From positions 1,984,001 through 2,048,000 of the forward strand of contig NC_089452.1 in the NCBI RefSeq assembly GCF_026210795.1: DNA of 64,000 nucleotides. The letters run 5' to 3'. The DNA comes from Rhizophagus irregularis (lineage: Eukaryota > Glomeromycota > Glomeromycetes > Glomerales > Glomeraceae). The notes beneath the pieces were generated by a model. The model saw only the letters and a list, made by a program, of their open reading frames with translations. It had not been told where the DNA came from and ran no database searches. How positions within the stretch are numbered: position 1 is the first letter of the stretch; every line of letters starts with the position of its first letter. This document shows positions 1,406-43,719 of the stretch, piece by piece. The translations under genes were made by a program, and so were the position numbers.

Positions 1406-3294
1406 TCACTTATTTCTCTTTTCAAAAACAACTCCGCAAGAACTTGGGGATGTCATTGGACCAAGCCTCCTTTTTTCTTCGATTTTACCACTTTCTGTAC
1501 GGAAATTATATTTCAAAATAGCGTTATGCATAAAAAATTTAATTTCGTTTATAGCAAGTTGTCTTCCAGGACATCTAAATAATTTAATGAACAATTGAAT
1601 TAATTAACGTCTACAAAAAAATTAGAAAAAAAAAAACTTCTTAAATATTATACTTACGCATGTTTACCACCTCCAAATGCTAAATAATTTCTAGTGACTT
1701 TTGATGCTGGAACATTTGCATCTAAATGTCTAAATGGTTCAAATGATTTTGGATTTGGTCCTTGTAATGATTCATCTCCATAAATATCATCAAAATAAAG
1801 ATCAATTAAATAATTTTCTGGTACTTGTAATCCATTAGAGAATGTATAATCTTTTAATATAGCGTGTTGAAGTCCCGTTATAAATCCTGTTAACCTTAAT
1901 GATTCTCTAATAAAACTATCTAATTTCTTCATATTATTAAGAGCTTCAAAAGGAAGTATGCCATTCTCATCCGCTTCTTTATGAACTTCTAATTGTTCCT
2001 CATATAATTCTTGCATATATTCAGGTCGAGATGCTAAATCAATAACAACATTCGCACAGGTTCTCGATGTTGTATGAATTGATACAAAAATGAATGCGCC
2101 TAACTTATCTGCTATAAATGGATAATCAACATTATTAGGATCAAAATCATCTTCTTCCATAGTATCTTGAAGAAAATCATCAGGCCGTTTCCAAGATTCA
2201 CCATATTTTTCTTTATCTTGTAAACGTTTGCAAATTTGTTTCTTAAGATGTTTAATTAATATATTTTGGTGTTTAGCTGCCGGATTATACAATCCTAATC
2301 TTATAATAATACGATTGATATAATTTTGAAGTCCTGGATAAATAAAATCGAGGATTGGTGGGATCATTAAAAATATTGCTGAATCACTTGTAAATTCTGC
2401 AAATGTAGTTATTATTTCCTCATATTGTGACACCTCCTATAAAATGAAAAAAAATAAATAAAATTTTTAATTTTTTTTTTCTTTAAATACATAAATAAAA
2501 AATAAATTAACTTAATTATGTATACTTACTTCACCAACAAAAATATTTGCAATAGGGGTAGAAATAATTTTAGTCATCAATTTATATATATTATAAATAA
2601 CTTTCGGTTCATCACATTCGCCAATTTGTTTTTGGGTAGCTGAATAAAGACTATTTTGCATACGTTCATTATAAAATTTCATTTTATTTAAGATATATTC
2701 TTTAAGTACTTTTGATGCATTTGTAAACCTTTCTAAGGTTTTAAGCATTACATCTCCTGGAAATATTCTTTCAAATGCTTCTGAAAAATCAAACACATCA
2801 TCTCTTGATAATACTTCTTGCGAATGTTCTTTTCCTATGAGTTAGTAGTAAAGTAATTAAAATGAATTTATAGATTAGGACATTTAAAATATTTTATATT
2901 TATTGAAAAAAAAAAATATGTAACTTACCAACAATTATTCTCACTTGACCCCATATATAAAGACAAAAGATATCTCCGTACTAAAAATACGATAATTGAT
3001 AGAAATTAAAAGTTTATTTATTTGACGCTAAAAAAAATTCATGAATTTACAAACCTCTTTTCTACATTGTTTAAGGAATTCTTCGGTATTATACAAATAA
3101 CTATAAGTATGACCAATAATCGGAATTTTATAACGAACGAGTGGCGGCATATTCTAAGAAAATAAAATAAAATTAAAAAATTTGAGATAGTAGGCCATTA
3201 GAAATTTTTATCTTACCAATTTTGGTTCACGCATACGCTTTAGAACGTAAAGCGTTATTATTAGAATGAATCCTAAGATAATAGCTTGATACAT
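1406..3294 (-). CDS. Cytochrome P450 monooxygenase (copy 1, six exons)
   Basis: Spliced model, minus strand: exons 3294-3217, 3153-3055, 2980-2929, 2834-2530, 2436-1658 and 1574-1406, giving 493 codons. All introns are GT-AG. Residues 1-20 form a hydrophobic N-terminal anchor (MYQAIILGFILIITLYVLKR), as expected for a microsomal P450. The I-helix segment reads FVSIHTTS, the K-helix ExxR is ESLR, the meander has FEPFRH, and the heme loop is FGGGKHACPGR with Cys439 as thiolate ligand. The last intron falls inside the heme loop, in the Ala codon just before the Cys. SIHTT-type I-helices occur in fungal ent-kaurene-oxidase-like and indole-diterpene P450s, but the substrate cannot be assigned. The frame is intact and the length normal. 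A close paralog lies at 49665-51557 on the other strand, with identical lengths for exons 1-4. Confidence 0.93.
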
Positions 3295-4990
3295 TCTTTT
3301 TTTTTTGAAATTTGATTATTTTTATCGGTTATTTAAAATATTTTAAAGAAGTATGCTCTTTAAAGAAAAAAAATGAATGCCTTCGCCTTTTATAAAAATT
3401 ATTTATTAATGAGATAAAAAAGAATATTCCAAAGAAGTTTCTCGTGCATTGTTTATGCAAGAATAAATTATAAACTGAAACAAATTTACGTCATTTATTG
3501 TCATAGAATACTAAGAGAAAATCATTTATGCCAAAAATGGAAATCACAGGTCGTGACCGATTATTTACTATTTGTAACACACCGAAAATTAAATCATGTG
3601 ATTATACATAATCTATAATAGTCATGGTACTTATCGCTGAAATTGATTAATTAACCAATATATAACGTACCACAAGCACATATTTAATTTCCTATTTAAT
3701 AAATGTTACTGATGAAATGATTGTATATATAAATTGTACCATAATACTAATCTAAAGATTTGGTTTGTGTATAATTAAATTTTATTTTAATTTGGTAATA
3801 AATTTACCTACGTATAACAATAACCTCCTTAGTTTAATAAATCAGACATGTGATCAATTTTCTAAAAAAAATTTTTATAGCGTAAAGTTAAAGTTAATAG
3901 ATACATGTCAATTTATTTATAAAAATAACTAATAATATGTAATACATCATGATGGAAAGTTGTATTTTAATTTATTAATGTCGTAATTCCTTACCTAATT
4001 CTTGGCGATTTTTTTCTACCTCCTTTTAATTTCTTTTGCCTCTTGTACTTCTTGCTTTAACTCCTCTTTGGCTAAAACTTTTTCCAGTGAATATGGAAAA
4101 ATCTATTCAATTCTAATTTACAAATCCGGGTTATGTTTGGTTATGACTTATGAGAAAGCAAGCCTTTAAATTACTCGAATACTCAAAATAACTACCAAAA
4201 TATATAATGTCTTATAACTACCAGAATTATTAAATAATCTGGGAAGTGTAGCGTTATAATTAATGAAAGAATTAATAGTTTTGAAAGTAATTGGAAAGTT
4301 TAAGCATAATATCACGTGTAATATATTAATGAAGCTTAAAAAGTCGATCACTTCAATTGAAATTCTGTACACGTAATCAACACAATCATGGTTAATAGTT
4401 TCCCATTAATATTTGTTTTTTTTTAAAAAAAAAAAAAATTTTTATGCGTAAACAAATTCATCTAAGTAGATTATTTTGGCATAAAAGATTTAACATTTAA
4501 AATACATAAATGATAATTGATAATTATGTAATAAATTCCCTTTTTCTAAGACACAACGTTGAATTAAAATGTGGCGCAGTACCAGACAATCGGATAAAAT
4601 TTTCAAAATTATAAATTAACTTTAATATAAAATAAAGCAATACCTACTATAAAAGGCTAAAATAAAATTCACATAATAATAACACTTACTATAAAAGGTT
4701 AAATAAAATTCATAAAACAATGACTAGAATTTATTCATTGTTTCCGATTCGTGTAGTAACATTAATGAAATTCATTTTAGGATTCATTTTAAAAAAAAAT
4801 AATGCTCATGGCAATAGAAATATTTAAAACATTTAACTGCCTAAAAAAAGCTTTAAAAAGACAATTTTCTCACATTTTTATCACTTATTTTTAATGACTA
4901 AAAGAATTAATAAAACATGTTATAATTTTATCTTACATTGATGAGCTTTTTTATTTATTCCTTTTTTATTCTTTACATATATATTATTAG
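3295..4990. other. Intergenic DNA, possible coiled-coil gene relic
   Basis: This is mostly featureless AT-rich DNA upstream of the P450. On the minus strand at about 4000-4090 a short stretch reads like a Lys/Glu-rich coiled coil (LEKVLAKEELKQEVQEAKE) and then hits a stop. No start, flanking exons or family could be identified, so it is at best a fragment. The remaining open frames look like chance. Confidence 0.35.
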
Positions 4991-5816
4991 GAATTGTATG
5001 AGTTAGGTCGTGACCCACCGTCATCTTTTAGTGCTGGATGATTTTTTCCATTGGCAAGCGCCCGTGAGTAATAATTTATCACTTTTAATCTTCATGTGTA
5101 AAGACTATAATAACTTTCGCTTGAATATTACGTTATAATTTGGATTAATACTCTGGAGCAGTGATGTGCTCTTGGAAGATTGGAAGCACTATTGGAAGCA
5201 ACTTTGAAAAAATTGGAAGCATAATTTTCTAATAAAACCATTTGGATTGGACAACCAGATTTTTATGTTATTGGAAGTATCACTGCTCTAGAGGTATACT
5301 TTATCTTGATATTCGTCTTGCAAGTGATTATCCATTCAAACCACCAAAGGTATACTTTTGCTTGTATAGTTATTTAATTGCATGATTACGCACTAAATTT
5401 GTTATATATACAGGTGAAGTTTACAACAAGAATCTATCATCCGAATATTACTGATAGTGGAAGTATAGATAGACGTGGATTTCTTAAGGGACCAATGGTC
5501 ACCAGCAATTACTATCTCTAGGGTAATAATTATTTATTATGAATATGTGAAATTTTTATTATATAAAAAAAAATATTAATAAAATCTTTTATCCTATCAA
5601 GTACTCTCGGAATTGTTGAGATATCCAAACCTAGGTATTTATAATTCAATTTTTCATATTCATTATTTTATGATTAATTTAACTGAAAATTATTTATAAA
5701 TAAATAGAATGTGATTTAATGCCCGAAATATCTCAAATCTCAATTGTACAAGACTGATCGTAATCGTTATAAAGATACTGTTAGGGAATCACTCGTAAAT
5801 ATGCTAGTAAGACATT
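4991..5816 (+). pseudogene. Ubiquitin-conjugating enzyme E2 pseudogene
   Basis: Pieces of a UBE2D/Ubc4-like E2 occur in order on the plus strand. ELYELGRDPPSSFSAG is at 4991-5038 and a FHWQA remnant follows. YSGG..YLDIRLASDYPFKPPK covers about 5149-5349 and is interrupted by a 127-bp element. VKFTTRIYHPNITDSGSID is at about 5413-5470, and YKTDRNRYKDTVRESLVNML ends at 5816. Intron-like gaps remain, with GTGAGT after the HWQA segment. The gene is dead by several criteria. The active-site Cys region (normally GSICLDIL) has become GSIDRRGF, an extra G near 5490 shifts the frame ahead of the conserved QWSPA segment, and a stop follows. I saw no first exon with a start codon. Confidence 0.85.
5159..5285. 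mobile_element. hAT-like MITE inside the E2 pseudogene
   Basis: This is a 127-bp insertion bounded by short inverted ends CAGTGAT...ATCACTG. It is flanked by an 8-bp direct repeat, CTCTGGAG at 5151-5158 and CTCTAGAG at 5286-5293, with one mismatch. Removing the element and one repeat restores the E2 codons for Tyr-Ser-Gly-Gly, which shows independently that this is an insertion. Inside, TTGGAAG recurs several times, like the subterminal repeats of hAT elements. Eight-bp duplications and CAGxG ends are hAT hallmarks. It has no coding capacity. Confidence 0.8.
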
Positions 5817-6410
5817 ATAAGATTTTTTTTTCTTTATTGACATTTTTATTATTTTAAGTTTTATTATCAATCATTACATGTCTCACTAATGTCCTATTTT
5901 TAAATATTTTATTTTAAATTTAAATGTAATTATTGATCAAATAAATCTAAAATATCTTTAAAAAGGAAAGTTATTGAGGAAAAATAAATAAGCTTTTAAA
6001 ACCATATGAAATGTGAAAATTTATATATTACTCGATTATTAAGCTAGATAGTTATTTAAAGGTAGATTGAAAATGAGGCGCAGCCTAAAAAATTATCAAA
6101 AACATTTATTACGCACAATAATTAAGTGAAATATTGGTAGTTGTAATTATATCGCAGTTTTACATTTAAACGATCAAATAATGATCATCAAATAAGTATA
6201 AAAAAAATTTAAATCTTTATTTATAGAATATTCATAAATATAAAATCCAATAAATCTACTGTATATATACTAAAATATACTACGTAAATAAATAAAAACA
6301 AAATATAATAATTTATAAAGTATAATGAAAGAAAGATAAAAGTAAAACTAACTTCAACATACAAACTAGTAATTTAAACTATTTTCTCTAACTTTCACAT
6401 AAAAAAACCT
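5817..6410. other. Intergenic, no feature seen
   Basis: AT-rich spacer between the E2 pseudogene and the 3' end of the minus-strand kinase. The region near 6200-6330 probably holds that gene's 3' UTR. Nothing else was supportable. Confidence 0.5.
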
Positions 6411-8307
6411 TCATTCAATATTATGTTCACTATCTTGACAAATTTCATTTAATTCTATAAAAAAAAATAGATTAGATAAATTAGAAAGGAAATATCATAT
6501 TAGTAAAATTAATAAATAATTACTTACCCAATTCACTTAATTGAACATCTAAGCATTCTGAAACTGTATATTATGTATTTATAGTATTTAAACATTAATA
6601 AATTTAAATAAAATAATTATAATAATGATAATTAAGAGAATACTTACTTGGATTTGCTGATGTTGATTGAGCAGTATAATTAGCATCTATTAAAAAAATA
6701 AAATAACATAAATAATGTAAAATGGATTATATGATAAAACAAAATTAAATTTAATTACCTGAACTGAATTGAAAAGATGATAAATCTGATGAATTTACTG
6801 GTTTTGGAAGATTTTTAAAATTTAAAAGTCTACTAGTATAAAATGCTTGTGGGTGTGTTTGGAAGCTTTTGGATTTATCTTCATTTGACCTGTTTTTGAA
6901 TTTTTCTTCTCTAGTTTTATCACATTCTTTTATTTGAAAGTAAATTTCACTATTTTGACTATCGGCACCATCATCCCATTTCTTTAATAGTTGATGTAAT
7001 TCTTTAGTGGTTGGTCTATTTTTTATTTCAGCATCCCAACATTTTATTATCAAATCTGCAAGTAACTTTGGTATGTCATTAGAAATTGTTGGTCTAAGTC
7101 CTTTACATATTTTAAAGGCTAAAAATTCATCATGAGGAATATCATTAAAAGGAATTTCTTCAGAAAGAAATTCATTCATTATTATTCCAAATGAGTAAAT
7201 ATCTGCTGCTTTTGTATATTGGTATCCACGTAAAACTTCTGGTGCCATATATGGTAATACTCCATAAATTCCTTCTTCTTTAACTGATTGCTTTATATTT
7301 GCTGGTTGACACATTCCTAAATCACTTATAAATGGAAGAGAATCAATACCATGCAATATATTACCTGAATGAAAATCTTTGTGAACTTTTTCAGCATTAT
7401 GAATATCTAAAAGTCCTCTTGCAATTTGTTGTAAGTTTTCAATTTTCAATTTATAATTGATATAATTTTTAGATTTATTTAAATAATTTCTCAAATTTCC
7501 ATATTTACAATAATATAAAACCATCATATACTCTTTATTATTTGGATCTTGAGTAATTCCATAACATTGAACAATATCATCATTATAAATCAGAAGATGA
7601 GATTTAATCTAATTATCATTAAAAATGAAAATTTTATTAATAAATAAATGCAAATAACAAACTTTATATATAAGATAAAGTAAGTTTAAATTACCTCATT
7701 TAAAAAATCTGAACATATATCAGAAGAATTATTCAAACTTTTTAATGCATATTTTTCAAAACTATATCTAAACCACTTTTGATTTTCAATATCCCAATAT
7801 TCAATATGTCCTACAGGCCATTCTGCTGAATAAATCTTACCGAAACCACCTTCTGCAATATAAGTGACGTTTTGAAATTTTTCAAAAGGTATCCATTCAA
7901 GACATTTAAGAAAATGTACAGCATTAAGTTGTGATTGTTGTATAAATTCATCAATATGTTTATTTCCACTAGTCCAATTTTTGAAGTTATCCTTAAATCT
8001 TTTAGCATTACAAGATTGACACCAATTGAATCCTGTGCCAGGTTCTTTACATTCTCCACATATTCCATATGCTTGTTTTCTTTTTTCTAAATCTCCTATA
8101 AAAACTACTCTTTCATCTACATTTTCTGATTCAATAGTTGAATCAATAGTAGGAATTGTAACATGGAGCTTTTAATAGACAAAAAATTATTAATATTTTT
8201 AACTACAAAAATTCAATAAATAATTATAATTATTAAAAATATTAAATTGCTATTACCTGATGTTTATCATCAACTTCCTTCCATAAATTTTTTGGCTTTT
8301 CATCCAT
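6411..8307 (-). CDS. TKL-like protein kinase 1 with N-terminal zinc-ribbon-like motif
   Basis: Spliced model, minus strand: exons 8307-8257, 8168-7695, 7608-6759, 6686-6648, 6557-6528 and 6454-6411, giving 495 residues with every junction GT-AG and in phase. Residues 54-70 carry CxxC...CxxC (Cys54, 57, 67, 70), a likely zinc ribbon, followed by WTSGNKHIDEFIQ. The kinase domain has a glycine loop EGGFGKIY (123-130), Lys160 in YALK, catalytic HKDFHSGN (Asp253, Asn258), SDLG in place of DFG (Asp271) and an APE motif. The Arg of HRD is replaced by Lys, so it is a non-RD-type kinase, but catalytic residues remain and activity is plausible. The tail carries HPQAFYTSRLLNF, a motif shared with kinases 2 and 3. 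The three tiny 3' exons (39, 30 and 44 nt) are inferred from splice signals and phase. Substrates are unknown. Confidence 0.9.
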
Positions 8308-13827: not shown

Positions 13828-16800
13828 ATGGACCAACGTGTTAAAGGTAAAGCATAGTATAACATGAAAGTTGAAATATTAAGATTTTTATTTATTAAAA
13901 AAATTTAATTGTAAATATAATTAAACCAACTTTGCAATATAACAAAACTAGTATTCGAAGGAAATGATACCAAGGAATCTAATGGTATGTCAAATAAGCT
14001 GAAATATTAAACTTTCATTTATAAACAATTCAAATACTATCTATAGTTTTATCTCATATAATATGCAAATATAATTTAGACTAATTATATTATATAAAAA
14101 TTATGTTAAATTTTTAGCTCGTAAGTTAATATAATTGAATAATAATGAGTTACTCATTATTTTTATTGTATTCCATATAACTAAATAATTTATTTAATGA
14201 TTAATAACACTGTTGTTTGTAAGTTATCAGTTATTTAAATTTTTAGTCCTTTACTTTATTTATTTTACATAACAACTAAATTCTTTGTTTAAATAACTAT
14301 TTAACAATTAATTTTATTACAGATGGTAAGTTACAATATATATATTATATTTATTTGTTTAATATTTTATATAATTCAACTAATTATATTATTAATTTAA
14401 ATAACTAGATTGTAAGTAATATATAATAACTTATAGTAAATATTTTGTATTATATTATATCTAACTAATTAATAATTAATAATACTACAGGGTGTAAGTT
14501 ATATAATATCTATATTTATATTATTTATATAATTTAAACTATCTAATTTCTTTATTTATTTAATAGATCGTAAGTTATAAGTTATTTATTTAATTTTATT
14601 ATTACTTATTTATACAATATTTATAGATAATTCAAACTAACTAATTTCTTTATTTAATAGATCGTAAGTTATAAGTTATTTAGTATTTAATTCTATTATT
14701 ACTTATTGTTATAATATTTACATATAATTCAAACCAACTAATTTCTTTATTTAAAAAAATTAATAAGATAAAGGGTGTAAGTTATTTATTGTCCAGAGCG
14801 TAGCGAAGGACTATTTATTGTATGGAACTAGATAAATTTGTAGTACCAGTTTAACCCATGTAATTTTCCTTCCTTCCACCTACGTCATCACCACAATTTC
14901 CTTTTTGAAACATAATGCCCCTGCTTATTTCCCTTTATACTTTTTATTTTTAGTAACATTGTATGCAATGTCCTTGATTACTTAATAAAGCAAAATGTAT
15001 CATGTTCATTATATAAAAAAAAAGACCCCGTATTTGAAAAAATTTTGTCACGTCGCGTTACTCCGCATATCACATCTGATAAGATCAATAATCAAACAAA
15101 TAAGTCACATGAAAAAAAAAGTACTTTCCTATTTCCTTCGTCTTACCCTTCCCCTTACTTCTCTCACTTTTTCTGGGGTTTAGTTTCCTTGAGCGTGATA
15201 TTTCAGGTTTTCATTTTTTTTTCTTTAATTTTTTTATCTTGGACCGGTTTTTAACATTTTTTTTCTTTTTTAGGCATTGTTTCTTAGCACTTTGGATACA
15301 TAGAAACTTGGTGAGAACATCTGCAAATGTATTTTTTCAAATTTATTTATTCTAACAAAGCATTGTTAACATTCAATTTTTCTCTTTTTTTAGATGGTTG
15401 ATGTTTAAAACAAAATACTGAAAGTTACCAGCAGCGCCAAGGAAAAATGGTTTTTTATGAATAAATTTTGGTGTAAACTTGGCCCTTTCAGACTTTTTTT
15501 TTTATTTTTCTTTTAATGAAATGTTACTAATAGTTCTTTTCTTTTTTTCTTTTGTAGGTGATTCTTTGAGTCTCTTGGACATATATTTTGGTAAGTGAAG
15601 TATTCTTTTTACTTAAATCAATTCTTTTAGCAAAATGTTTGCTAATATTTCATCTTCACTTTTTTTAGAGTCATCTGGACGCGTTAGATTTAGGTAAGAT
15701 ATTTTTTTACTTTGTTATTTGTTTTAACAAAATAACGAAACTTTTACTAGTAACATTTCGTTTTATTACTTTTTTTTAGACAGTTTCTTCAAATATCTAT
15801 GGACATGAATTTCGGTAAGGTTGGAAATCTGGTTCTCCCTAGATGCATTACGGTATGTGTTTAAATATTTTTTCTTTGTCTTTTTTTTTATTTTTAACAA
15901 AATGTAACGTCTGCTAATATTTTTTGTTTCTTTAGTTGCAGATTTTAGGCAGCTTTTGGGTGACGAAACGACTTATTGCTCCAGACTTACAATGGTTCCC
16001 ATTTCCCTAGTTTAATTTTATTATCACTTGTTGTTGTAATATTTACTTATAATTTAAACTAACTAATTTCTTTATTTAAAAAATTATTAATAATAAAGCA
16101 AGTAAGTTATTTATTTAATTCAATTATTACTTATTGTTATCATAATATTTAACATATAATTTAACTAACTAATTTCTTTATTTAAAAAATTATTAATAAT
16201 AAAGCAAGTAAGTTATTTATTTAATTATATTATCACTTATGGTTACAATATTTACATATAATTTAAACTAACTAATTTCTTTATTTAAAAAATTATTAAT
16301 AATAAAGCAAGTAAGTTATTTATTTAATTCAATTATTACTTATTGTTACAATATTTACATATAATTTAAACTAACTAATTTCTTTATTTAAAAAATTATT
16401 AAATAATATAGGGAGTAAGTTATTTATTTAATTCCAATATTACTTATTGTTATAATATTTATATATAATTTAAACTAACTAATTTCTTTATTTAAAAAAT
16501 TATTAAATAATATAGCGAGTAAGCTATTTATTTAATTCTATTACTACTTATTGTTATAATATTTACATGTAATTTAAAATAACTAATTTCTTTATTTAAT
16601 AGTTTGTAAGTTACAAGTTATTTATTTAATTCTATTATTACTTATTTACTTGTTACATATAATTTGAACCAACTAATTTCTTTATTTAAAAAATTATTAA
16701 ATAATATAGGGAGTAAGTTATTTATTTAATTCTATTATTACTTATTGTTACAATATTTACACATAATTTAAACACTAATTTCTTTATTTAAAAATTATTA

Positions 16801-18705
16801 AATAATATAGCAAGTAAGTTAATTATTTAATTCTATTATTACTTGTTGTTGTAATATTTACATATAATTTAAACTAACTACTAATTTCTTTATTTATTAA
16901 TAATATAGGGAGTAAGTTATTTATTTAATTCTATTATTACATATTGTTATAATATTTACATATATTAAAATAACTAATTTTTTTATTTAAAAAATTATTA
17001 AATAATATAGGGAGTAAGTTATTTATTTAATTCTATTATTACTTGTTACATATAATTTAAACTAACTAATTTCTTTATTTAAAAAATTATTAAATAATAT
17101 AGTGTGTAAGTTATTTATTTAATTCTATTATTACTTATTGTTATAATATTTATATATAATTTAAACTAACTAATCTCTTTATTTAAAAAATTATTAATAA
17201 TATAGGGTGTAAGTGTAAGTTATTTATTTAATTCTATTATTACTTGTTGTTATAATATTTTCACATAATTTAAACTAACTAATTTCTTTATTTAAATAAT
17301 TATTTATGATCTAGCTTGTAAGTATCTATATTGTTATATATTTATATAATTTTTATTTATTTGTTGACTGAATTCTTTCATTTGAAAAATATAGTCGGTA
17401 AATTGTAAATCATAGGTTATTATATGTATTTATCTATTAATTAAAACTCATATTAATTAAACATTAAATTCCTATTTGAATTTTAGAGTAAGTAATAATT
17501 TATTCGTATAAATTATAATACAATCTATAATATAATTTTATTATTCAAATTTATAGATTTGGAAAAAGTGGAAATGCAATTATGGATGATTTTATTTTTA
17601 AAAAAAAATTAAATTGGATTCCTTATGACAAATTTAAAAATGTTGAATATCTTAATGAAGGAGGATTTAGTATTATATACAAAGCTATTTGGTTAAAGAA
17701 TTATAAAGAAGTAATTGTTAAATGTCACAAGGATTTAAATGAAAATTTGAATGAATTTTTAAAAGAAGTATGATAGTGTATTGTTTTCTATTTTTAATTT
17801 AATTTATATTAATGAATTATTATTATTTTTTATAGTGGGAATGCCATACAAGTGTTTTAAACTCAACCAATATTATATATTTTTATGGATTCACAGAAGA
17901 TCCAAATACATCGAAATATATGGCAGTAATGGATTATGCAAATGAAGGTAATTTAAGAGGAAATTTAACAAGAATAGTCAAAAATGATTGGAATCAAAAA
18001 TTATATATGTTGTACGAAATTATTTCTGGACTTAGTAGGATACATGGAGAAAAGCTTATTCATTGTGATTTTCATGATGGTAATATTTTAAATCATAATG
18101 ATAAGAATAAGGATAAAATTTATATTAGTGATTTAGGATTATGTCAACCTGTAAAATCGTTTTTGAAAGAGTATGATATTCATGGTGTTATACCATTTAT
18201 GGCTCCTGAAGTTTTAAGAGGCAAACCTTATACTCCAGCTAGTGATATATATAGTTTTTCTATGATTATGTGGGAGTTTACATCTGGAATACCACCATTT
18301 ATTAATAGAGCACATGATCTTCAACTTAGTTTAAGTATTTGTAAAGGTGAACGTCCTGAAATTATTGAAAATACTCCACAATGTTATGTAAATTTAATGA
18401 AAAAATGTTGGAATGAAGATCCATTAAAAAGGCCATCTACATCAGAAGTGAAAGGTGTTATTTATAATTGGATTATCCTTTCCGATGATTATAAAATTTA
18501 TAAAAATGTTGATTATAAAATTTATAAAAAATCAAAAAGCAACTTTATGGAATTTATAAATGCAATTGGGTGCAACAACCTTGCTACTAAATCTCACCCT
18601 AAAGTAGGGATGGCAACGGTCGGTCATGGTCGGTCATTGGTCGGTCATAACCGGTCAAGAACCTTTGACCGACCGACCGACCGACCGTTTGACCGACCGG
18701 TCTGA
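13828..18705 (+). CDS. TKL-like protein kinase 2 with microexon array, C-tail truncated by a MITE
   Basis: Proposed model: exon 13828-13846 (MDQRVK), exon 13952-13984 (FEGNDTKESN), 21 three-nt exons from 14118 to 17397, a 1-nt exon at 17487, exon 17557-17767, and exon 17836-18705; 398 codons, in frame throughout. The kinase part is certain: WIPYDKF, glycine loop NEGGFSIIY, VIVKCHK, catalytic HCDFHDGN, SDLG, APEVLRG. HRD Arg is replaced by Cys (non-RD). The array part is a strong inference. If it is not used, translation could start at the Met at 17582. The final 34 codons lie inside a MITE at 18605. The original tail continues beyond it at 18968-19072 (CYTSRLLDF...LNDCVIKDLRSL), then an exon at 19143-19222 ending in TAG. 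The paralog at 42570-43719 keeps the uninterrupted tail. Confidence 0.85.
14118..17487 (+). repeat. Tandem mini-intron / 3-nt microexon array of kinase gene 2
   Basis: Units of about 100 bp each run from GTAAGT to a 3' TAG or CAG, with CTAAC-like branch sequences. Exactly 3 nt sit between the AG and the next GT. Triplets: CTC 14118, ATG 14323, ATT 14409, GGT 14491, ATC 14577, ATC 14661, GGT 14774; then after an insertion CAA 16099, CAA 16205, CAA 16308, GGA 16412, CGA 16516, TTT 16603, GGA 16710, CAA 16811, GGA 16909, GGA 17011, TGT 17103, GGT 17206, CTT 17315, TCG 17395, and a single A at 17487. A further copy at about 14216-14218 (TTT) has lost its AG and would be skipped without changing phase. 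Read in the kinase phase there is no stop. Whether all are spliced in is unproven. Confidence 0.75.
14789..16009 (+). other. 1.2-kb insertion inside the kinase 2 array, T-rich, intron-like modules
   Basis: The ~100-bp unit pattern breaks at about 14789 (after GTAAGTTATTTA) and resumes at about 16010 (TTTAATTTTATTATCACTTG), as if foreign DNA had entered one mini-intron. The insert has strong pyrimidine tracts ending in TTTTTTAG and several short exon-like segments followed by GTAAG. Examples end in GGACATATATTTTG (before 15590), CGTTAGATTTAG (before 15693) and GGACATGAATTTCG (before 15815). No protein family was recognised and no clear terminal repeats were found. It could be part of another gene or a transposed spliced transcript unit. 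Confidence 0.4.
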
Positions 18706-18959
18706 CCGATCCTGAAAACGTTTGCGAAACGTAATTTAATTGAAATACTTAATAAAAAACGTTTTCGCAACGTTTTCTATTAAAATAATTAAAAAACCGT
18801 TTGTGAAACATTTTTTTTATTAAATTACGTTTCGCAAACGCTTTCAGGATCGGTTAAACGGTCGGTCAAACGGTCGGTCAGAGGTCTTTGACCGACCGAT
18901 ATCGGTCATGGTCATGACCGGTCATAACCGGTTAATGACCGTGACCATTGCCATCCCTA
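18605..18959. mobile_element. hAT-like foldback MITE inserted in the kinase 2 coding exon
   Basis: This 355-bp element has terminal repeats TAGGGATGGCAA / TTGCCATCCCTA and a perfect 8-bp target duplication, CCCTAAAG at 18597-18604 and 18960-18967. Subterminal arrays of GACCGACC / GGTCGGTC and an inner palindrome around CGTTTGCGAAACG make most of it self-complementary. Its GC is clearly higher than its surroundings. It contributes 34 codons of new C-terminus to the kinase before a stop at 18703-18705. Confidence 0.9.
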
Positions 18960-30249: not shown

Positions 30250-32196
30250 ATGTCACCAATCTTACCCGAAAAAGTTAAACGAAGTAAATCTGGTACAAAA
30301 TACCTTCCTGCAGTTGACCTGCATGAACGCAGGTATAAAGAAGCAAGAAATATCGTAATAAATACGATACAAGAATCTCATGCTACGGGTATTTCTCGTA
30401 TAAGATTCATAACTGGACGTGGAAATCACGTAAATCAAAATGGTGAACAAGGAGTACTTTATAAAGCTTTTCGCTCATGGTTGTCTGATACTACTATTAA
30501 ACATTTGGTACAAAGTTATATCAAATATGATGGATCTTATGTAGTATTTCTTAAAATATCTAAGGAATCAAATTCTACGGATTCATACTTTGATGTAAGT
30601 GTTATTAAACAAGAAGCTTTAAATGGTGATATTGATGCGCAATTTATTCTTGGATTAATGTATCTTGATGGTAATGGTGGTGTTAAACAAGATGCTGCTG
30701 AAGCTTTAAAATGGTTAAGAAAATGCGCTGAAAAAGGTGATATTAGTGCACAATTAATTATTGGAAATTTATTACAAGAAGGAACCGTTGTTGATAAAAA
30801 TGTTAAAGAAGCTTTTAAATGGTTTAAAAAAGCTGCTGAAGGTGATAATTCTGATGCTCAACTTATACTTGGAAGAATTTATCTTGATGGTAATGAAGCT
30901 AAACAACAAGATATTGGTCAAGCCTTAAAATGGTTTAAAAAATCTGCTGAAAAAGGTGATGATAGTGCACAATTAATAGTTGGTGAATTATTATATCAAG
31001 GAAAAGGCGCTAAAAAAGATATTAAAGAAGCTTTTAAATGGTTTAAACAATCTGCTGAAAATGATAATCCTGATGCTCAATTTACTATTGCAAAAATGTA
31101 TTTTGATGGTGATGGTATTAAAAAAGATATTGATGAAGCTTTAATATGGTTGAAAAAATCTGCTGAACAAGGTGTTGTTAATGCTCAATTATTTATTGGA
31201 AATTTATTATATGAAGGAAATGTTATTAAAAATAATTCAAAAGAAGCTTTTAAATGGTTTGAAAAAGCTGCAGAAAAGGGTAATTTGGATGCTCAATTTA
31301 CTATTGGACGTATGTATCTTGATGGTAATGGAGTTAAAAAAGATATTGAAAAAGCTTTAAAATGGTTTAAACAACCCGCTGAACAAGGTGATCCTAATGC
31401 ACAATTTATCGTTGGAAATTTATTACAAGAAGGAAAAAGCGTTAAAAAAGATGCTAAAGAAGCTTTTAAATTATTTAAAAAAGCTGCAGAAAATGGTAAT
31501 ATGGGCGCTCAATTTACTCTTGGAAGAATTTATCTTTCTGGTAATGAAGTTAAACAGCAAGATATTGGTCAAGCTTTAAAATGGTTTAAAAAATCCGCAG
31601 AACAAGGCGATGTTAGTTCACAATTAATCGTAGGAAATTTATTATACGAAGGAAAAGGCGCTAAAAAAGATACTAAAGAAGCTTTTAATTGGTTTAAAAA
31701 AGCTGCAGAAAATGATAGTACCGATGCTCAATTTACTATTGGACGAATGTATCTTGATGGTGATGGAGTTGATAAAGATTTTGAAGCTGCTTTAAAATGG
31801 ATCAAATTATCTGCTAAACAGGATGATACTAATGCTCAATTACGAGCTGGAAAATTATTATATGAAAGTAAAGATATGAGTAACGGTAATAAAGAAGCTC
31901 TCAAATTGTTTAAACAAGCAGCTAAACAAAATAATGCTGATGCACAAATTATGGTTAGTAAAATGTATTTAAATGGCGATGGAGTTTGGAGGAAAAATAA
32001 CAAGAAATCATTAAAATGGATGTTAAGAGCCGCTGAACAAAATAATAATACAGAAGCTCAATTTCTCCTTGGAAAGATGTACGCTAAAGGCAATGGGGTT
32101 AAACAAAAGAATATTGAAGAAGCCCTAAAATGGTTTAAAAAGGCTGCTGAACAAGGACATTTTGAAGCCGGAATTATCGTTGATGCTTTTGTTTAA
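30250..32196 (+). CDS. Smr domain protein with 14 Sel1 repeats
   Basis: Single exon, 648 residues. Residues 18-105 form an Smr domain: the DLH motif (23-25, followed by Glu rather than the usual Gly), an EA pair at 31-32, TGRGNH at 55-60 and the GVLYKAFRSWL helix. Smr domains bind or cut nucleic acid, and DLH plus the TGxGxH loop are the key signatures. Residues about 120-645 are 14 consecutive ~36-residue Sel1 (TPR-like) repeats, each with AQ..xGxxYxxG and EALKWFKKAAE features. They alternate between a Y-L-D-G type and an L-L-Y-E-G type, so the array grew by doubling a two-repeat unit. The protein is probably a cytosolic scaffold with a nucleic-acid-related head; partners are unknown. The ATG is preceded by a leader ending TTTTAAACC. 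Confidence 0.93.
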   Translation: MSPILPEKVKRSKSGTKYLPAVDLHERRYKEARNIVINTIQESHATGISRIRFITGRGNHVNQNGEQGVLYKAFRSWLSDTTIKHLVQSYIKYDGSYVVFLKISKESNSTDSYFDVSVIKQEALNGDIDAQFILGLMYLDGNGGVKQDAAEALKWLRKCAEKGDISAQLIIGNLLQEGTVVDKNVKEAFKWFKKAAEGDNSDAQLILGRIYLDGNEAKQQDIGQALKWFKKSAEKGDDSAQLIVGELLYQGKGAKKDIKEAFKWFKQSAENDNPDAQFTIAKMYFDGDGIKKDIDEALIWLKKSAEQGVVNAQLFIGNLLYEGNVIKNNSKEAFKWFEKAAEKGNLDAQFTIGRMYLDGNGVKKDIEKALKWFKQPAEQGDPNAQFIVGNLLQEGKSVKKDAKEAFKLFKKAAENGNMGAQFTLGRIYLSGNEVKQQDIGQALKWFKKSAEQGDVSSQLIVGNLLYEGKGAKKDTKEAFNWFKKAAENDSTDAQFTIGRMYLDGDGVDKDFEAALKWIKLSAKQDDTNAQLRAGKLLYESKDMSNGNKEALKLFKQAAKQNNADAQIMVSKMYLNGDGVWRKNNKKSLKWMLRAAEQNNNTEAQFLLGKMYAKGNGVKQKNIEEALKWFKKAAEQGHFEAGIIVDAFV

Positions 32197-37917: not shown

Positions 37918-38374
37918 TTTTGTGTGGAACTAAAGAACCTGAAGGTAAATATAATATACAAAACAAAGTTGAAATATTAAGATTTTTATTTATTAAAAAA
38001 CTTAATTGTAAATAATCAAATATAATTAAATCAAATTTGCAATATAACAAAACTAGTTTCAAGTAATATTGAAGAATTTGAAGAAAGTGGCACTGGAGAA
38101 TATAAGGGTATATTAAACAAGCTGAAATATTAAATTTTTATTTATTAAAACATTTAATTGTAAATAATCAAATATAATTAAACCAAATTTACAATATACA
38201 AAACTAGTTACCAGTAATATTGAAGAATTTGAAGAAAGTGACACTGAAGAATTTGAGGGAGTGGAACTGAAAAATTTGAAGAAAGTGGTATTGAAGAATT
38301 TAAAGAAAGCACTAAAGAATTTGAAGGAAGTGGAACTGAAGAATTTGATGATAGCAGTATTAAGGAATCTAAAG
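37918..38374 (+). CDS. Acidic 5' exons of kinase gene 3
   Basis: Three exons follow ACTAG acceptors: 37918-37944 (LCGTKEPE), 38057-38107 (SSNIEEFEESGTGEYK) and 38208-38374 (TSNIEEFEESDTEEFEG...). The third holds several copies of a GAAGAATTTGAAGAAAGTGG-type unit, so the gene encodes Glu-rich repeats. The introns between them are near-identical, so the exon-intron unit was duplicated. The first two exons end in phase 1, as does the matching exon of gene 2. The third is 167 nt, one short of phase, because an A is missing in GAGGGAGTGG near 38258. See the array entry for a possible compensation. No ATG precedes them in frame. An ATG in the shifted frame lies at 38347. Confidence 0.5.
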
Positions 38375-38496: not shown

Positions 38497-41400
38497 CTCG
38501 TAAGTTAATAAGTTATCTTATAATTTCTTATAATTGAATAATAATGACATTACTTATTATTTGTGTTATATTCCATGCAACTAAATAATTCATTTAATGA
38601 TTAATAATACTATAGTTAGTAAGTTATCAGTTATTTAAATCTTTAGTTCTTTTCTTAATTTATTTTACATTATATTCAGATAAATTCTTTGTTTAAATAA
38701 CTATTTAATATTACAGATGGTAAGTAACAATAGTATATTTATTTGTTTTAATATTTTATATGACTCAACTAATTATATTCTAAATTCAATTAACTAGATT
38801 GTAAGTTGATAGTATATTTAATTTATAGTATTAAAATGCTTTGTATTATATTTGTATCTAACTAATTATTGATAATTATACTACAGGGTGTAAGTTGTAT
38901 AATATTTATATTTCTATTATATATATAAAATAAGCTAACTAAACTTTATTGAAAAATTTCCTTTTAGTTGGTAGGTTATAAGTTATTTATTTAATTTTAT
39001 TATTACTTATTTATATACAATATTTAAACTAACAAATCCTTTATTTAAAAAAATTATTTAATAATATAGAGTGTATGTAAGTTATTTAATTAATTCTATT
39101 AATATTTATTTATATAATATTTACATATAATTTAGACTAACTAAATTCTTTATTTTAAAAAAATTATTTAATAATATAGGGAGTAAGTTATTTATTTAAT
39201 TTCATCATTATTTATTTATATAATATTTGCATATAAACTAAATCCTTTATTTAAAATTATTTTGTAATTTCTTTTAGCTGGTAAGTTTATAAATTATTTA
39301 TTTAATTCCGTCTATTATTGCTTTTAAATAATACTATATATATAATTCAACCAAACTAAATCCTTTAATTAAAAATTATTTTGTAATTTTCTTTTAGATG
39401 GTAAGTTATAAGTATTTATTTAACTCTATTATTACTATTTATATAATATTTACAAATTTTTACTTAAAAAATTATTTTATAATTCCTTTTAGATCGTTAG
39501 TCATTTACTTAATTCTATTATTAAATATTTATATAATCCTTACATATAATTTAAACCAACTAAAACTTTTATTTAAAAATTATTTAATAATATAGGGTGT
39601 AAGTTATTTATTTAATTCTATTGTTATTTATTTAAATATTTGCATATAATTTAAACTAATAAATTCTTTATTTAAAAAATTATTTAATAATATAGTTCGT
39701 AAGTTAAATATTTAATTTTATTATCACTTATTTATATATAATTTAGACTAACTAAATTCTTTATTTAAAAAATTATTTAATGATATAGAGAGTAAGTTAT
39801 TTACTTAATTCTATTATCACTTAATCATATAATACTTATATATAATTTATTCTTTATTTAACAAAATTTTTTTGTAACTTATTTTAGATGGTAAGTTATA
39901 AATTACTTATTTAATTCTATTATTATATATTTATATAATATTTAAAAATTATTTTGTAATTTCCTTTAGATCGTAAGTTATAAGTTATTAATTATTACTT
40001 ATGTACATATAATTTAAACTACTAACTAAATTATTTATTTAAAAAATTATATAATAATATAGGGTGTAAGTTATTTATTTAATTCTGTTATTAATAGTTT
40101 ATATAATATTTACATATAATTTAAACTAACTAATTGTTTATTTAAAAAATTATTTAATGATATACTAGGGTGTAAGTTAATCTATTTAATTTTATTATTA
40201 ATTGTTTATATAATATTTACAAATAATTTAAACTAACTAAATTCTTTATTTAAAAATTATTTTTATAACTTTGTTTAGTGAGTAAGTTATAAGCTATTTA
40301 TTTAATTCTATTAATTTAATTTAACTAATTCTTTATTTAATAATATAGGGAGTAAGTTATTTTTAATTCTATATTACTTATTTATATAATATTTAAATAT
40401 AATTAAACTAAATAAACTATTTATTTAAAAAATTATTTTGTGATTTCTTTAGCTCATAAGTTATAAGTCATTTATTTAATTCTAGTATAATTACATATTA
40501 TATGATATATACATTAATTTAAACTAATTAAATTCTTTAAATTATTTTAATTTCATTAGCTCGTAAGCTATTGTTATTTATTTACTTATTTTATATAATA
40601 TTTTCATATTAATTTAAACTAACTAAATTGTTTATTTAAAAATTATTAATAATGTAGGGGGTAAGTTATTTATTTAATTCAATTATTACTTATTTATATA
40701 ATATTTACATATAATTTAAACTAATTAAATTATTTATTTAAAAATTATTAAATAATACAGAGAGTAAGTTATTTATTTAATTCTATTATTACTTATTTAT
40801 ATAATTTAAACTAACTAAATTTTTTATTTAAAAAATTATTTAATATTATAGAGTGTTAGTTATTATTCAATTCTATTATTATATATTTATATAATATTTA
40901 AAAATTATTTTGTAATATCCTTTAGATCGTAAGTTATAAGTTATTAGTTATTACTTATGTACATATAATTTAAACTAACTAAATTATTTATTTAAAATTA
41001 TATAATATTATAGGGTGTAAGTTATTTATTTAATTCTGTTATTAATAGTTTATATAATATTTACATATAATTTAAACTAACTAAATTCTTTATTTAAAAA
41101 ATTATTTTACAGATGGTAAGTTATTTATCTAATTTTATTATTGCTTATTATTTATATAATATTTACATATAACTTAAACTAACCAAATTCTTTATTTAAA
41201 AAATTATTAAATAATATAGAGAGTAAGTTATTTATTTAATTCTATTATTATTTATTGTTATAATCTTTACATATAATTTAATCTAACAAATTTCTTTATT
41301 TAAAAATTATTAAATAATATAGGGTGTAAGTTATTTATTTAATTCTATTATTACTTATTGTTATTATATTTACTAATAATTTAAACTAACTAATTTCTTT

Positions 41401-42477
41401 ATTTAAAAAATTATTAAATAATATAGGGTGTAAGTTATTTATTTAATTCTATTATTATTTGTTGTTATAATATTTACTTATAATTTAAACTAATTCCTTT
41501 GTTTAAAAATTATTTCATAGATGGTAAGTTATTTATTTAATTCTATTATTACTTATTGTTATAATATTTACATATAATTTAAACTAACTATATTCTTTAT
41601 TTAAAATATTATTTTATAGATAGTATGTTATTTAATTCTATCATTACTTATTGTTATAATATTTACATATAATTCAAACTAATTAACTATTTATTTTAAA
41701 AAAATATCTTATAATTTCTTTTAGATCGTAAGTTATAAGCTATTTATTTTAATTCTAACATTATTTTTTATATAATATTTACATATAATTTAAACTAATT
41801 AAATTCTCTATTTAAAAAATTATTTAATAATATAGAGAGTAAGTTATTTATTAATAATATTTTTATTATGGTTAAATATTATTTAAGTTATTTATTTAAT
41901 TCTATTATTAATTATTACATGATATTTACATATAATTTAAACTAACTAAACTATTTGTTTAAAAAATATTTTGTATTTCTTTTAGATCGTAAGTTATAAG
42001 CTATTTTTATTTTAATTCTACCATTACTTATTTATATAATATTTACATAATTTAAACTAACCAAATTCTTTATTTAAAAATTATTTAATAATATAGAGAG
42101 TAAGTTATTTATTAATAATATTTTTTATAATGGTTAAATATTATTTAAACTACTAAATTTTTAATTTAAAAAATTATTTAATAATATAGAGTGTAAGTTA
42201 TTCATTTAATTCTATTATTACTTAGTTATATAATCTTTATATATAATTTAAACTAACCAAATTCTTTATTTAAAAAAATTATTTGATAATATAGATTGTA
42301 AGTTATTTGTTGTTTCTATTGTTATAATATATTTCATATAATATTTATTTGTTACTGAATACTTTCATTTGAAAATTTCTGTTACTTTAGTTGGTAAGTT
42401 GTAAAATATGAGTTATTATTATAAATTTATACAAAAGTTAAAACATATATTATATTAAATTCCCATTTAAATTTAGA
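38497..42477 (+). repeat. Tandem mini-intron / 3-nt microexon array of kinase gene 3
   Basis: Forty triplets, spaced about 100 bp, lie between a 3' splice site (mostly AATATAG or CTTTTAG) and a 5' splice site (GTAAGT; variants GTAGGT, GTATGT, GTTAGT). Examples: CTC 38497, TTA 38616, ATG 38717, ATT 38798, GGT 38887, TTG 38968, GGA 39180, TGA 40279, GGG 40658, ATC 40926, ATA 41620, AGT 42190, TTG 42391, then a lone A at 42477. One copy (CTC 40453) has lost its donor; one (AGT 39070) has a 4-nt donor extension. Joined in phase 1 the array reads ALNDWFEWTDDRFQNDRWLR and some 20 more residues without a stop, then enters the kinase exon in frame. Phase 0 meets TGA and phase 2 meets TAA. Use of every unit is unproven. 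Confidence 0.8.
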
Positions 42478-42569: not shown

Positions 42570-43719
42570 ATTTGGAGAAAGTAAAAATAGAATTATGGAT
42601 AATTTTATTTTTGAAAAAGGTTTAGAATGGATTCCCTATAATAAACTTAAAAATGTTGAATATCTTAATGAAGGAGGATTTGGTACTATATACAAAGCTA
42701 TTTGGTTAAATAATGATAGAGATGATGGAGATAAAGAAGTAATTCTTAAATGTCATAAAAATTTAAATGAAGATTTAAATGAATTTTTAAATGAAGTATG
42801 ATAATATATTATTTATATTTTTAATTATTTAGATTATAATCTATATATACTAATATATTATTATTTTTTATAGTGGAAATATCATGAAAGTTGTTTAGAT
42901 TCAAGTAATATTATAAATCTTTATGGATTTACAAACAATCCAGATACTTTATTATATATGGTAGTAATGGATTATGCAAACAAAGGTAATTTAAGAGAAA
43001 ACTTAACAAGAATAATCAAAAATAATTGGAATCAAAAACTATATATGTTGTATGAAGTTATTTCTGGACTTAATAAGATACATGAACAAAATCTTATTCA
43101 TTGTGATTTTCATGATGGCAATATTTTAAATCATAATAATGATAAAGTTTATATTAGTGATTTAGGATTATGTCAATCTGTAAAATCATTTTTGAAAAAG
43201 TATGATATTTATGGTGTTATACCATTTATGGCACCTGAAATTTTAAGAGGTAAATCTTATACTCCAGCTAGCGATATATATAGTTTTTCTATGATTATGT
43301 GGGAATTTACATCTGGGGTACCACCATTTAACAATAGAGCACATGATCTTCAACTTAGTTTAAGTATTTGTAAAGGTGAACGTCCTGAAATTATTGAAAA
43401 TACTCCACAATATTATGTTGATTTAATGAAAAAGTGTTGGGATGAAGATCCATTAAAAAGGCCATCTTCTAAAGAAGTGTTGAATATTATTAAAGAATGG
43501 ATATTTCTTCCTTATAGAAAGAAAATTAGAGATATTAATGAAGAATTAAAATGTAATATTTTGAAATTTATAAATGCACCAATTGGATATAATAATCTTG
43601 CTACTGAACCTCATCCACAAGCACACTATACAAGTCGCTTACTTGATTTTACTAGTAAAGAATTGAATGAAATTCTTGAAAGTGAAGATTTGAATGATTG
43701 TATGGTATTAGGTATGTAA
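42570..43719 (+). CDS. TKL-like protein kinase 3, catalytic domain
   Basis: Exons 42570-42795 and 42874-43719. From the Met at 42595 there are 348 residues; upstream, the frame continues through FGESKNRI into the microexon array. Glycine loop NEGGFGTIY (25-33), Lys52 in VILK, catalytic HCDFHDGN (Asp145, Asn150), SDLG (Asp163), APEILRG. As in kinase 2, HRD Arg is Cys. The tail carries HPQAHYTSRLLDF and LNDCM. The last codons could be read through (VLGM then TAA) or spliced at GTATGT (43713) to a two-codon end at 43793-43797; both end within two residues. The gene is closely related to kinase 2 at 17557-18596, and its uninterrupted tail marks the empty site of the kinase 2 MITE. Soluble signalling kinase; substrates unknown. 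Confidence 0.92.

What the first reader, a model, noticed from the sequence alone, without database searches (positions are those of the whole stretch)
14118..17557. The paralogous kinase 2 carries an independent copy of the microexon array
The same architecture precedes kinase 2: 21 complete triplets and again no stop in the kinase phase. Here the 5' side is intact, with ATG at 13828, then MDQRVK, FEGNDTKESN, the array and the kinase, all in one frame (398 codons). The two arrays differ in length and triplet content but agree at both ends (A-L-x-D-W at the start, FEFG at the end). Expansion and contraction of units always changes the protein by whole residues, which would make this a length-variable domain generator.
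Basis: partly seen in the sequence, partly recalled or inferred. Interest (0 to 1): 0.88.

Follow-up and report, generated by a model that had tools for sequence, protein, structure and literature searches.

The report
Kinase arm built from single-codon exons
In a root-dwelling fungus, a family of kinase genes carries rows of 9 to 71 three-base stretches, each framed by complete splice signals, and these are predicted to be spliced together one codon at a time into a highly variable protein arm, an arrangement that would be an extreme among split genes.

Summary
The window lies in a Rhizophagus irregularis genome. Kinase 2 has 20 strict AG|NNN|GTA[AG]G units plus one with a weaker donor, and one open frame of 398 codons. 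The same architecture was seen in 31 of 31 kinase loci read; 14 of these were reached through kinase matches.

No cDNA was available, but the genome carries a strong trace of splicing. In the kinase frame every arm codon is the last base of one 3-nt exon plus the first two of the next, about 96 nt away. Of 633 adjacent junctions in 20 genes none is a stop (shuffled mean 19.9, minimum 6 in 5000). Pairs one exon further apart show no depletion (17 against 16.7). A second set of 9 loci repeats this (0 of 153, expected 5.5). Non-coding satellite, the public phase-0 models and frequent exon skipping are disfavoured.

A one-base exon sets the kinase frame in 20 of 20 arrays with that end.

Codons are hypervariable: units with identical flanking intron differ in their triplet in 88% of between-array pairs, although some intron classes keep one triplet. 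Codons are NNK-like: no Cys, Met rare, in practice one reachable stop.

Function as a variable recognition arm is inferred.

The parts
13828..13846 (+). Exon 1 of kinase 2 (MDQRVK), ends in phase 1
   Evidence: Open from ATG; donor GTAAAG
13952..13984 (+). Exon 2 (V-FEGNDTKESN), ends in phase 1
   Evidence: Acceptor ACTAG, donor GTATGT
14118..17317 (+). Array of 20 strict 3-nt exons separated by introns
   Evidence: AG|NNN|GTA[AG]G units listed with coordinates
14216..14218 (+). Decayed second unit (TTT): donor kept, acceptor AG lost, predicted to be skipped
   Evidence: one search finds no AG within 25 nt of the donor at 14219
14777..16098 (+). Array intron of 1322 nt that holds a 1.2-kb insertion (about 14787-16010)
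   Evidence: Gap between triplets GGT 14774 and CAA 16099
17395..17397 (+). 21st triplet (TCG) with weaker donor GTAAAT
17487..17487 (+). Predicted single-nucleotide exon (A) that sets the kinase frame
   Evidence: AG|A|GTAAGT; same place in 20 of 20 arrays that reach a kinase
17557..17767 (+). First long kinase exon (FGKSGNAIMDD...)
   Evidence: kinase domain hit for the public model P0063 of this gene
17836..18705 (+). Last kinase exon, stop inside an inserted element
18605..18959 (+). Inserted terminal-inverted-repeat element with CCCTAAAG on both sides
38497..42393 (+). Array 1 before kinase 1: 35 strict 3-nt exons
42570..43719 (+). Kinase 1 coding region after its array
   Evidence: Pfam hit for its public model P0068

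Best explanation
Kinase 2 starts with a tandem array in which complete intron-like segments separate exon-like stretches only three bases long, and this array is predicted to be spliced constitutively, neighbour to neighbour, so that every codon of an N-terminal variable arm would be assembled across a phase-1 intron. Each unit is an intron (donor GTAAGT, usually a branch-point-like CTAAC or CTAAT, acceptor AG) plus one triplet N1N2N3; a codon is N3 of one exon followed by N1N2 of the next. Upstream exons enter in phase 1, and a final one-base exon (A) is predicted to hand over to the kinase frame. Shown from sequence: the units, the frames, the absence of stops across immediate junctions only, presence of the array in 31 of 31 loci read, and codon hypervariability on near-identical introns. 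Inferred: that the RNA is spliced this way, since no cDNA was available; that array length and codon order change by recombination between the similar introns, which would not break the frame; and that the arm is a diversified binding segment feeding a signalling kinase, perhaps for recognition of self, partner or ligand.
For: Junction codons: 0 stops in 633 adjacent junctions (shuffled mean 19.9, minimum 6 in 5000); 0 in 261 distinct triplet pairs (shuffled mean 11.4, minimum 3). A triplet ending in T is never followed by AGN, while those ending in A, C and G are, 31, 23 and 28 times. Pairs at distance 2 to 6 are within chance (17 against 16.7 at distance 2), and the reversed order at distance 1 gives 23. 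The depletion holds in shuffles within strata of intron 3' context (0 against 12.3) and 5' context (0 against 13.2), minimum 4 in 5000 each. Second set of 9 loci: 0 of 153, expected 5.46, P=0.001. The other two frames show no depletion: phase 0 has 3 stops against 2.3, phase 2 has 95 against 75.6. Introns vary in length (52 values, all three residues mod 3) while exon lengths not divisible by three are rare: two of 4 nt and two of 2 nt. CTAAC lies near the 3' end in 61% of introns against 1% shuffled. One-base exon with GTAAGT at 20 of 20 array ends that reach a kinase. Of 14 distinct loci reached through kinase matches, 14 have arrays.
Against: No transcript, junction read or peptide was available. 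At least seven public protein models, by eye, join the triplets in phase 0 with a 5-nt last exon AGTAA (P0003, P0005, P0009, P0022, P0031, P0033, P0040; P0022 threaded). No public protein matched the phase-1 peptides of the 9 of 21 array segments that I searched. L011 and L025 each hold two units of 4 or 2 nt; 3 of 70 gapped junctions would read as stops, two of which are relieved by an intervening unit with a weaker donor. Inside the single commonest intron class the junction test has no power (expected 0.3 to 2.5). Kinase 2 itself has two insertions and an interrupted 3' end, so this copy may be decaying. No spliced retrocopy turned up for the one array tried.
Confidence: 0.85

Rival explanations
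1. The array is a non-coding tandem repeat (satellite) inside one long intron or upstream of the gene, and the kinase starts at an internal ATG such as 17582.
For: The array is a tandem repeat; the public model of kinase 2 starts at that ATG (P0063).
Against: Junction stop avoidance needs the triplets in the mRNA. Many sister kinases have ATA in place of that ATG, for example L009 to L011, L013 and L014. Exons stay at three bases while introns vary freely in length.
Confidence: 0.04
2. The triplets are spliced, but in phase 0 as whole codons, joined to the kinase by a 5-nt exon AGTAA, as in some public models.
For: At least seven public models show such peptides, one of which threads onto its locus.
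Against: Phase-0 stops are not depleted: 3 of 724, expected 2.3, plus 1 of 177 in the second set. The donor it needs, GTAATA, is GTGTTA in kinase 1, GTAGTG in L010 and GTATTG in L020, while GTAAGT for the one-base exon is kept in 20 of 20. Located upstream exons end in phase 1; P0022 has to use a cryptic exon and skip units.
Confidence: 0.05
3. The array is mainly a substrate for alternative splicing that makes many isoforms by skipping units.
For: Any skip of whole units keeps the frame; microexon skipping is known in other organisms.
Against: Junctions that would arise by skipping one unit contain stops at the chance rate (17 against 16.7; 5 against 4.4 in the second set), so frequent skipping would often truncate the protein.
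Confidence: 0.12
4. Triplets are stepping stones of recursive splicing and are removed with the introns.
For: Acceptor and donor lie back to back, as at recursive splice sites.
Against: Removed bases would not form codons, so stop avoidance would have no cause.
Confidence: 0.03
5. The family is as described, but kinase 2 is a decaying copy whose array is no longer used.
For: A 1.2-kb insert in an array intron, one lost acceptor, an element in the 3' end.
Against: 398 codons remain open, catalytic motifs HCDFHDGN and DLG are present, and 20 triplets keep strict sites.
Confidence: 0.3

Closest known systems
Schistosome micro-exon genes (MEGs)
   Same: Many consecutive short symmetric exons; a proposed source of protein variation (passage in PMC5825161).
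   Different: MEG exons are described there as 6 to 36 bp making up about 80% of the coding region, and the proteins as secreted or membrane-anchored, varied by alternative splicing. Here exons are 3 nt in arrays of 9 to 71, the product is predicted to be a kinase, introns form a tandem repeat, and the data argue against frequent skipping.
Aphid bicycle and megacycle genes
   Same: Many small internal exons, nearly all of one phase; rapid evolution; a megacycle gene has more than 100 microexons (passages in PMC9168663).
   Different: No tandem single-codon units, shared intron repeat or kinase are mentioned in the passages seen; a protein of about 2000 residues from somewhat over 100 microexons means longer exons.
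Single-nucleotide exon of plant APC11 (and VPS55)
   Same: A one-base exon with effective splicing, missed by annotation (abstract of PMC4674806; passages in PMC8831610).
   Different: There single exons in unrelated plant genes; here a conserved last element of a tandem microexon array.
Introner and introner-like elements
   Same: Many near-identical introns in one genome (search listings only: PMC9860276, PMC4457414).
   Different: Introners insert into many genes; here every intron array that I read lies upstream of this kinase family, at fixed 3-nt spacing.
Diversity-generating retroelements and synthetic NNK libraries (recalled, not looked up)
   Same: Two variable codon positions with a restricted third base that limits stop codons.
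   Different: No reverse transcriptase or template was looked for; the restriction to T/G may come from splicing constraints.

Membership tests
Micro-exon gene (MEG type) | About 80% of the coding region in short symmetric exons of 6 to 36 bp (PMC5825161) | tested here: not met
   Exons are symmetric but 3 nt long, and only the N-terminal arm is affected; the kinase lies in long exons
Micro-exon gene (MEG type) | Variation by alternative splicing | tested here: inconclusive
   Distance-2 junctions show no stop avoidance, which argues against frequent skipping; no RNA data
Micro-exon gene (MEG type) | Secreted or membrane-anchored product | not tested
   No signal-peptide or membrane prediction was run
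Introner element | Near-identical introns | tested here: met
   64 units from 14 of 21 array segments share identical 40+40-nt flanks, although 633 full introns are 544 distinct sequences
Introner element | Spread to many unrelated genes | tested here: not met
   All 19 stretches fetched around the listed intron matches belong to kinase arrays; unlisted matches were not read
Protein kinase (PF07714) | Kinase domain with catalytic motifs | tested here: met
   Pfam E=1.4e-38 (P0063, kinase 2) and 1.8e-45 (P0068, kinase 1); HCDFHDGN and DLG present
Spliced single-codon exon array (as proposed here) | mRNA contains consecutive triplets in order | not testable with these tools
   No transcript data; the indirect test by junction stop avoidance is met

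The most novel reading that the evidence does not exclude
A eukaryotic diversity generator that works codon by codon: the cassette is one intron plus one codon, the intron is kept uniform across the genome so that cassettes can be shuffled, duplicated and lost without ever breaking the frame, and the codon is a natural NNK-like, nearly random residue. Perhaps over a hundred fungal kinases would then carry arms of up to about 70 freely evolving residues as a repertoire of recognition segments, assembled only at splicing.
Probability: 0.3. Interest if true: 0.97.

Novelty: categorically new. Interest (0 to 1): 0.92.

Why it matters
If transcripts confirm it, more than a thousand exons in one genome would be one codon long and joined in series, beyond the microexon genes described in the papers I saw, and would test how the spliceosome handles back-to-back sites three bases apart. 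It would also show a way to build a hypervariable protein segment in which recombination falls in introns, so that variants stay in frame. PF07714 is the most frequent motif among the rapidly expanded genes of this fungus (passage in PMC6123716), and the public protein models of these genes that I saw miss or misread the arm. Existing RNA reads, remapped with 3-nt and 1-nt exons allowed, could decide it.

Tried and rejected
Satellite or single-intron reading: rejected on junction stop avoidance.

Phase 0: taken seriously after public models showed ...LSK-FGKS. Rejected because phase-0 stops are not depleted, the donor it needs is not conserved and the located upstream exons do not fit.

Linkage of intron classes as the cause of the missing T-AG pairs: tested by stratified shuffles, rejected. 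Within the single commonest intron (27 cases) and its close relatives (84, 89 cases) the test lacks power (expected 0.3, 2.1, 2.5).

Introner spread: not supported by the fetched arrays. Intron insertion by reverse splicing: would not give 3-nt spacing (reasoning only).

Spliced retrocopy as direct proof: searched with the joined L010 arm, none found among 40 matches. Public proteins in the spliced phase: of 2955 candidates none reached E 0.1, for 9 of 21 array segments.

Strain comparison: P0009 and P0005 against their best loci suggested array differences, but orthology is not secure (93-95% identity), so I draw nothing from it.

Block comparison: in 10 same-array block pairs with under 1% intron divergence, triplets differ at 0.216 per site against 0.0037 in introns, but register is uncertain because many units are 104 bp; 2 between-array pairs (13 units) had identical triplets. 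Not used as proof of directed change.

Array count by the start-pair pattern: not completed. Instead 1272 exact copies of a strict unit were counted (control 0); 271 of my 724 triplets match it, so about 3400 units would be a rough extrapolation, from arrays mostly chosen by intron identity.
Full report
WHAT THE WINDOW IS. The window is G000:C24:1984001-2048000 of a 146.7-Mb genome in 32 contigs. Contig lengths of G000 (C16 4,919,323; C2 6,138,810; C7 5,344,717) equal those listed for public Rhizophagus irregularis proteins with OCT59 locus names (P0014, P0071, P0083), so the organism is R. irregularis, an arbuscular mycorrhizal fungus.

THE OBSERVATION. Upstream of kinase 2 there are 20 units of the form AG|NNN|GTA[AG]G between 14118 and 17317, and a further triplet, TCG at 17395, with donor GTAAAT. 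The second unit (TTT, 14216) has lost its acceptor, so this gene's arm starts A-H-D-W by canonical splicing. Array 1 (38497-42393) has 35 strict units.

IT IS A GENE FAMILY. One 41-base intron stretch occurs 152 times in the genome (only the first places were listed). I fetched 19 stretches around listed places; all 19 hold such arrays. They make 17 genes, since L025 with L026, and L016 with L017, each belong together (the latter taken as one gene whose array is interrupted by 3.3 kb). With the two arrays of the window and locus L036 this gives 21 array segments in 20 genes and 724 strict triplets, 18 to 71 per segment. Through kinase matches I reached 14 distinct loci (two of them already known from the intron match), and 14 of 14 have the array. 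One of these, L029 with L041, has a complete array of only 9 strict units. In total 31 distinct loci were read and 31 carry an array; they are the best matches, not a random sample. The genome searches scored 131 candidate places each and reported 178 and 179 matches, exons counted apart; whether the unread ones have arrays is not known. A strict unit pattern occurs 1272 times, its reversed control 0 times; 271 of the 724 triplets match it.

ANATOMY OF A UNIT. The 633 introns of at most 125 nt between neighbouring triplets have median 99 and mean 96 nt, range 67-125, G+C 11.6%; 61% carry CTAAC near the 3' end against 1% after shuffling. Intron lengths take 52 values and all residues mod 3 (235, 228, 170). 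Exons do not vary like that. Of 755 GTA[AG]G donors in the array spans, 627 have the nearest AG exactly three bases upstream and 97 more are AGN triplets with a second AG; the other 31 are odd cases, many inside insertions. Lengths not divisible by three in array units are two of 4 nt (L011) and two of 2 nt (L025); 6-nt units occur (L036, L012). Arrays mostly start [CTC/CTT TTG/TTA ATG] ATT GGT, some directly at ATT GGT (L011, L013, L014, L022), and mostly end CTT TTG with variants such as CTT TCG, CTT TTA, ATT TTG.

FRAME. The upstream exons that could be located end in phase 1 (..AAAG|GTATATC and variants), and the kinase exon starts with the last base of a codon (A TTT GGA). The link needs 3n+1 bases, and in 20 of 20 arrays whose end reaches a kinase there is a one-base exon, A in 19 and T in one, with donor GTAAGT. 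Among the second-set loci my scan found it in L029, L030, L031 and L035 but not in L032 and L033; read by eye, L038 has A|GTAAGT, L039 A|GTAGGT and L040 G|GTAAAT, so the donor is not invariant outside the first set. The alternative 5-nt exon AGTAA would use GTAATA, which is GTGTTA in kinase 1, GTAGTG in L010 and GTATTG in L020.

THE DECISIVE TEST WITHOUT RNA. In this frame each codon is N3 of exon i plus N1N2 of exon i+1, bases that lie about 96 nt apart in DNA and touch only in a spliced RNA. Stops at the 633 adjacent junctions: 0. Shuffling triplets within arrays gives 19.9 on average and never fewer than 6 in 5000. Collapsing to 261 distinct pairs: 0 against 11.4 (minimum 3). Triplets ending in T precede AGN 0 times; those ending in A, C, G do so 31, 23 and 28 times. 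Controls: distance 2 gives 17 against 16.7, distance 3 gives 13 against 13.9, distances 4 to 6 are within chance, and the reversed order at distance 1 gives 23. Phase 0 has 3 stops against 2.3 and phase 2 has 95 against 75.6. Shuffles restricted to introns with the same last 10 or first 14 bases still expect 12.3 and 13.2, minimum 4. I then took 9 further loci found by kinase match (177 triplets): 0 of 153 against 5.46, P=0.001; distance 2, 5 against 4.4. Among 70 junctions with gaps over 125 nt, 3 would be stops; two of these have an intervening unit with a weaker donor (TTG|GCAAGT in L011, GGG|GTATGT in L025), and the third has a 2-nt unit. I conclude that neighbouring triplets are joined and translated in the kinase phase, and that skipping a unit is not frequent enough to leave a trace. 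This is inference from selection, not an RNA observation.

PUBLIC MODELS. The protein search with the predicted L014 protein gave 85 proteins, of Rhizophagus species by their names. At least seven of the 85, by eye (P0003, P0005, P0009, P0022, P0031, P0033 from R. diaphanus, P0040), contain strings of triplet-encoded residues, but in phase 0 and joined by AGTAA. P0022, the only one threaded, follows its own locus with a few units skipped and a cryptic exon that changes the phase. I read these as gene-finder output, not transcript proof; that is a judgement. Of 2955 candidates none matched the phase-1 peptides of nine arrays.

HYPERVARIABLE CODONS. Base frequencies at N1 and N3 are spread (entropy 1.88 and 1.99 bits) beside introns that are 88% A+T; N2 is T (56%) or G (39%). 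Pairs of units with no difference in 30+30 flanking bases carry different triplets in 88% of 4173 between-array pairs and 55% of 584 within-array pairs, while control 3-mers inside the intron with equally identical flanks differ in 0-23% (pairs are not independent). One identical 40+40 flank occurs in 64 units from 14 array segments with 15 different triplets. Against this, some flank classes keep one triplet: 8 of 8 and 5 of 5 units ATG, 7 of 8 ATC, 6 of 7 ATT, and 633 full introns are 544 distinct sequences, so intron uniformity is partial. In the spliced frame N2 is the third codon position, so codons are NNK-like; NTG and NGT are nearly absent, so all amino acids but Cys occur (Met 4 of 633) and TAG is in practice the only reachable stop. 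Composition is R 12, D 10, F 8, W 8, Y 7%. Why N2 avoids A and C is unexplained. Recently duplicated blocks keep their triplets (L022, and L016 against L017, 0-0.1% intron divergence), so triplets do not change at every copying.

FUNCTION. The arm lies between a short, often acidic N-terminus (EEFEGSGT-like repeats in many copies) and a kinase domain with HCDFHDGN and DLG. Charged and aromatic residues are prominent, the ends are similar ([LF]xDW near the start of many, FEFG or FEYG at the end of most) and the middle is free. I infer a variable binding segment on a signalling kinase. PF07714 was the most frequent motif among rapidly expanded R. irregularis genes (passage in PMC6123716). What the arm binds is unknown.

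LITERATURE. Ten searches of open PubMed Central text listed no paper, by title and abstract start, that describes single-codon exon arrays or this feature of the kinases; subscription papers and most preprints are not covered. [quoted passage not shown]

VERDICT. RNA evidence is the missing step.

Noticed in passing
window 14787-16010: A 1.2-kb insertion in an array intron of kinase 2, itself with exon-like pieces and splice-like signals; its nature was not determined.
   Followed up: no
window 18605-18959: Element with 15-bp terminal inverted repeats (one mismatch) and 8-bp flanking repeats CCCTAAAG (a hAT-like MITE by shape, recalled), in which the kinase 2 frame ends.
   Followed up: partly
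window 38218-38374: 24-bp coding repeat (EEFEGSGT-like acidic units) upstream of array 1: a second, ordinary length-variable repeat in the same gene.
   Followed up: partly
L011 reverse complement 1416-5888: A recurrent array unit TTG with a GC donor (gcaagt) in 7 gaps, and one TTA unit of the same kind: GC-AG introns within the array.
   Followed up: partly
21 array segments: The middle base of the 3-nt exons is T or G in 95% of 724 triplets; GT and TG as first two bases are nearly absent. Unexplained.
   Followed up: partly
window 6751-7527 (-): A third kinase-like ORF on the minus strand; an array was not looked for there.
   Followed up: no
window 30250-32196: 648-codon ORF with tandem coding repeats of about 108 and 216 bp (Sel1-like by eye).
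   Followed up: no
window 1654-2433 (-) and 50529-51302 (+); 58544-58888 and 63337-63681: Two pairs of similar ORFs (P450-like and methyltransferase-like by eye) within the window.
   Followed up: no
L016 and L017, reverse complement: One gene's array appears split by 3.3 kb without units and carries a duplicated block of nine units with identical triplets.
   Followed up: partly
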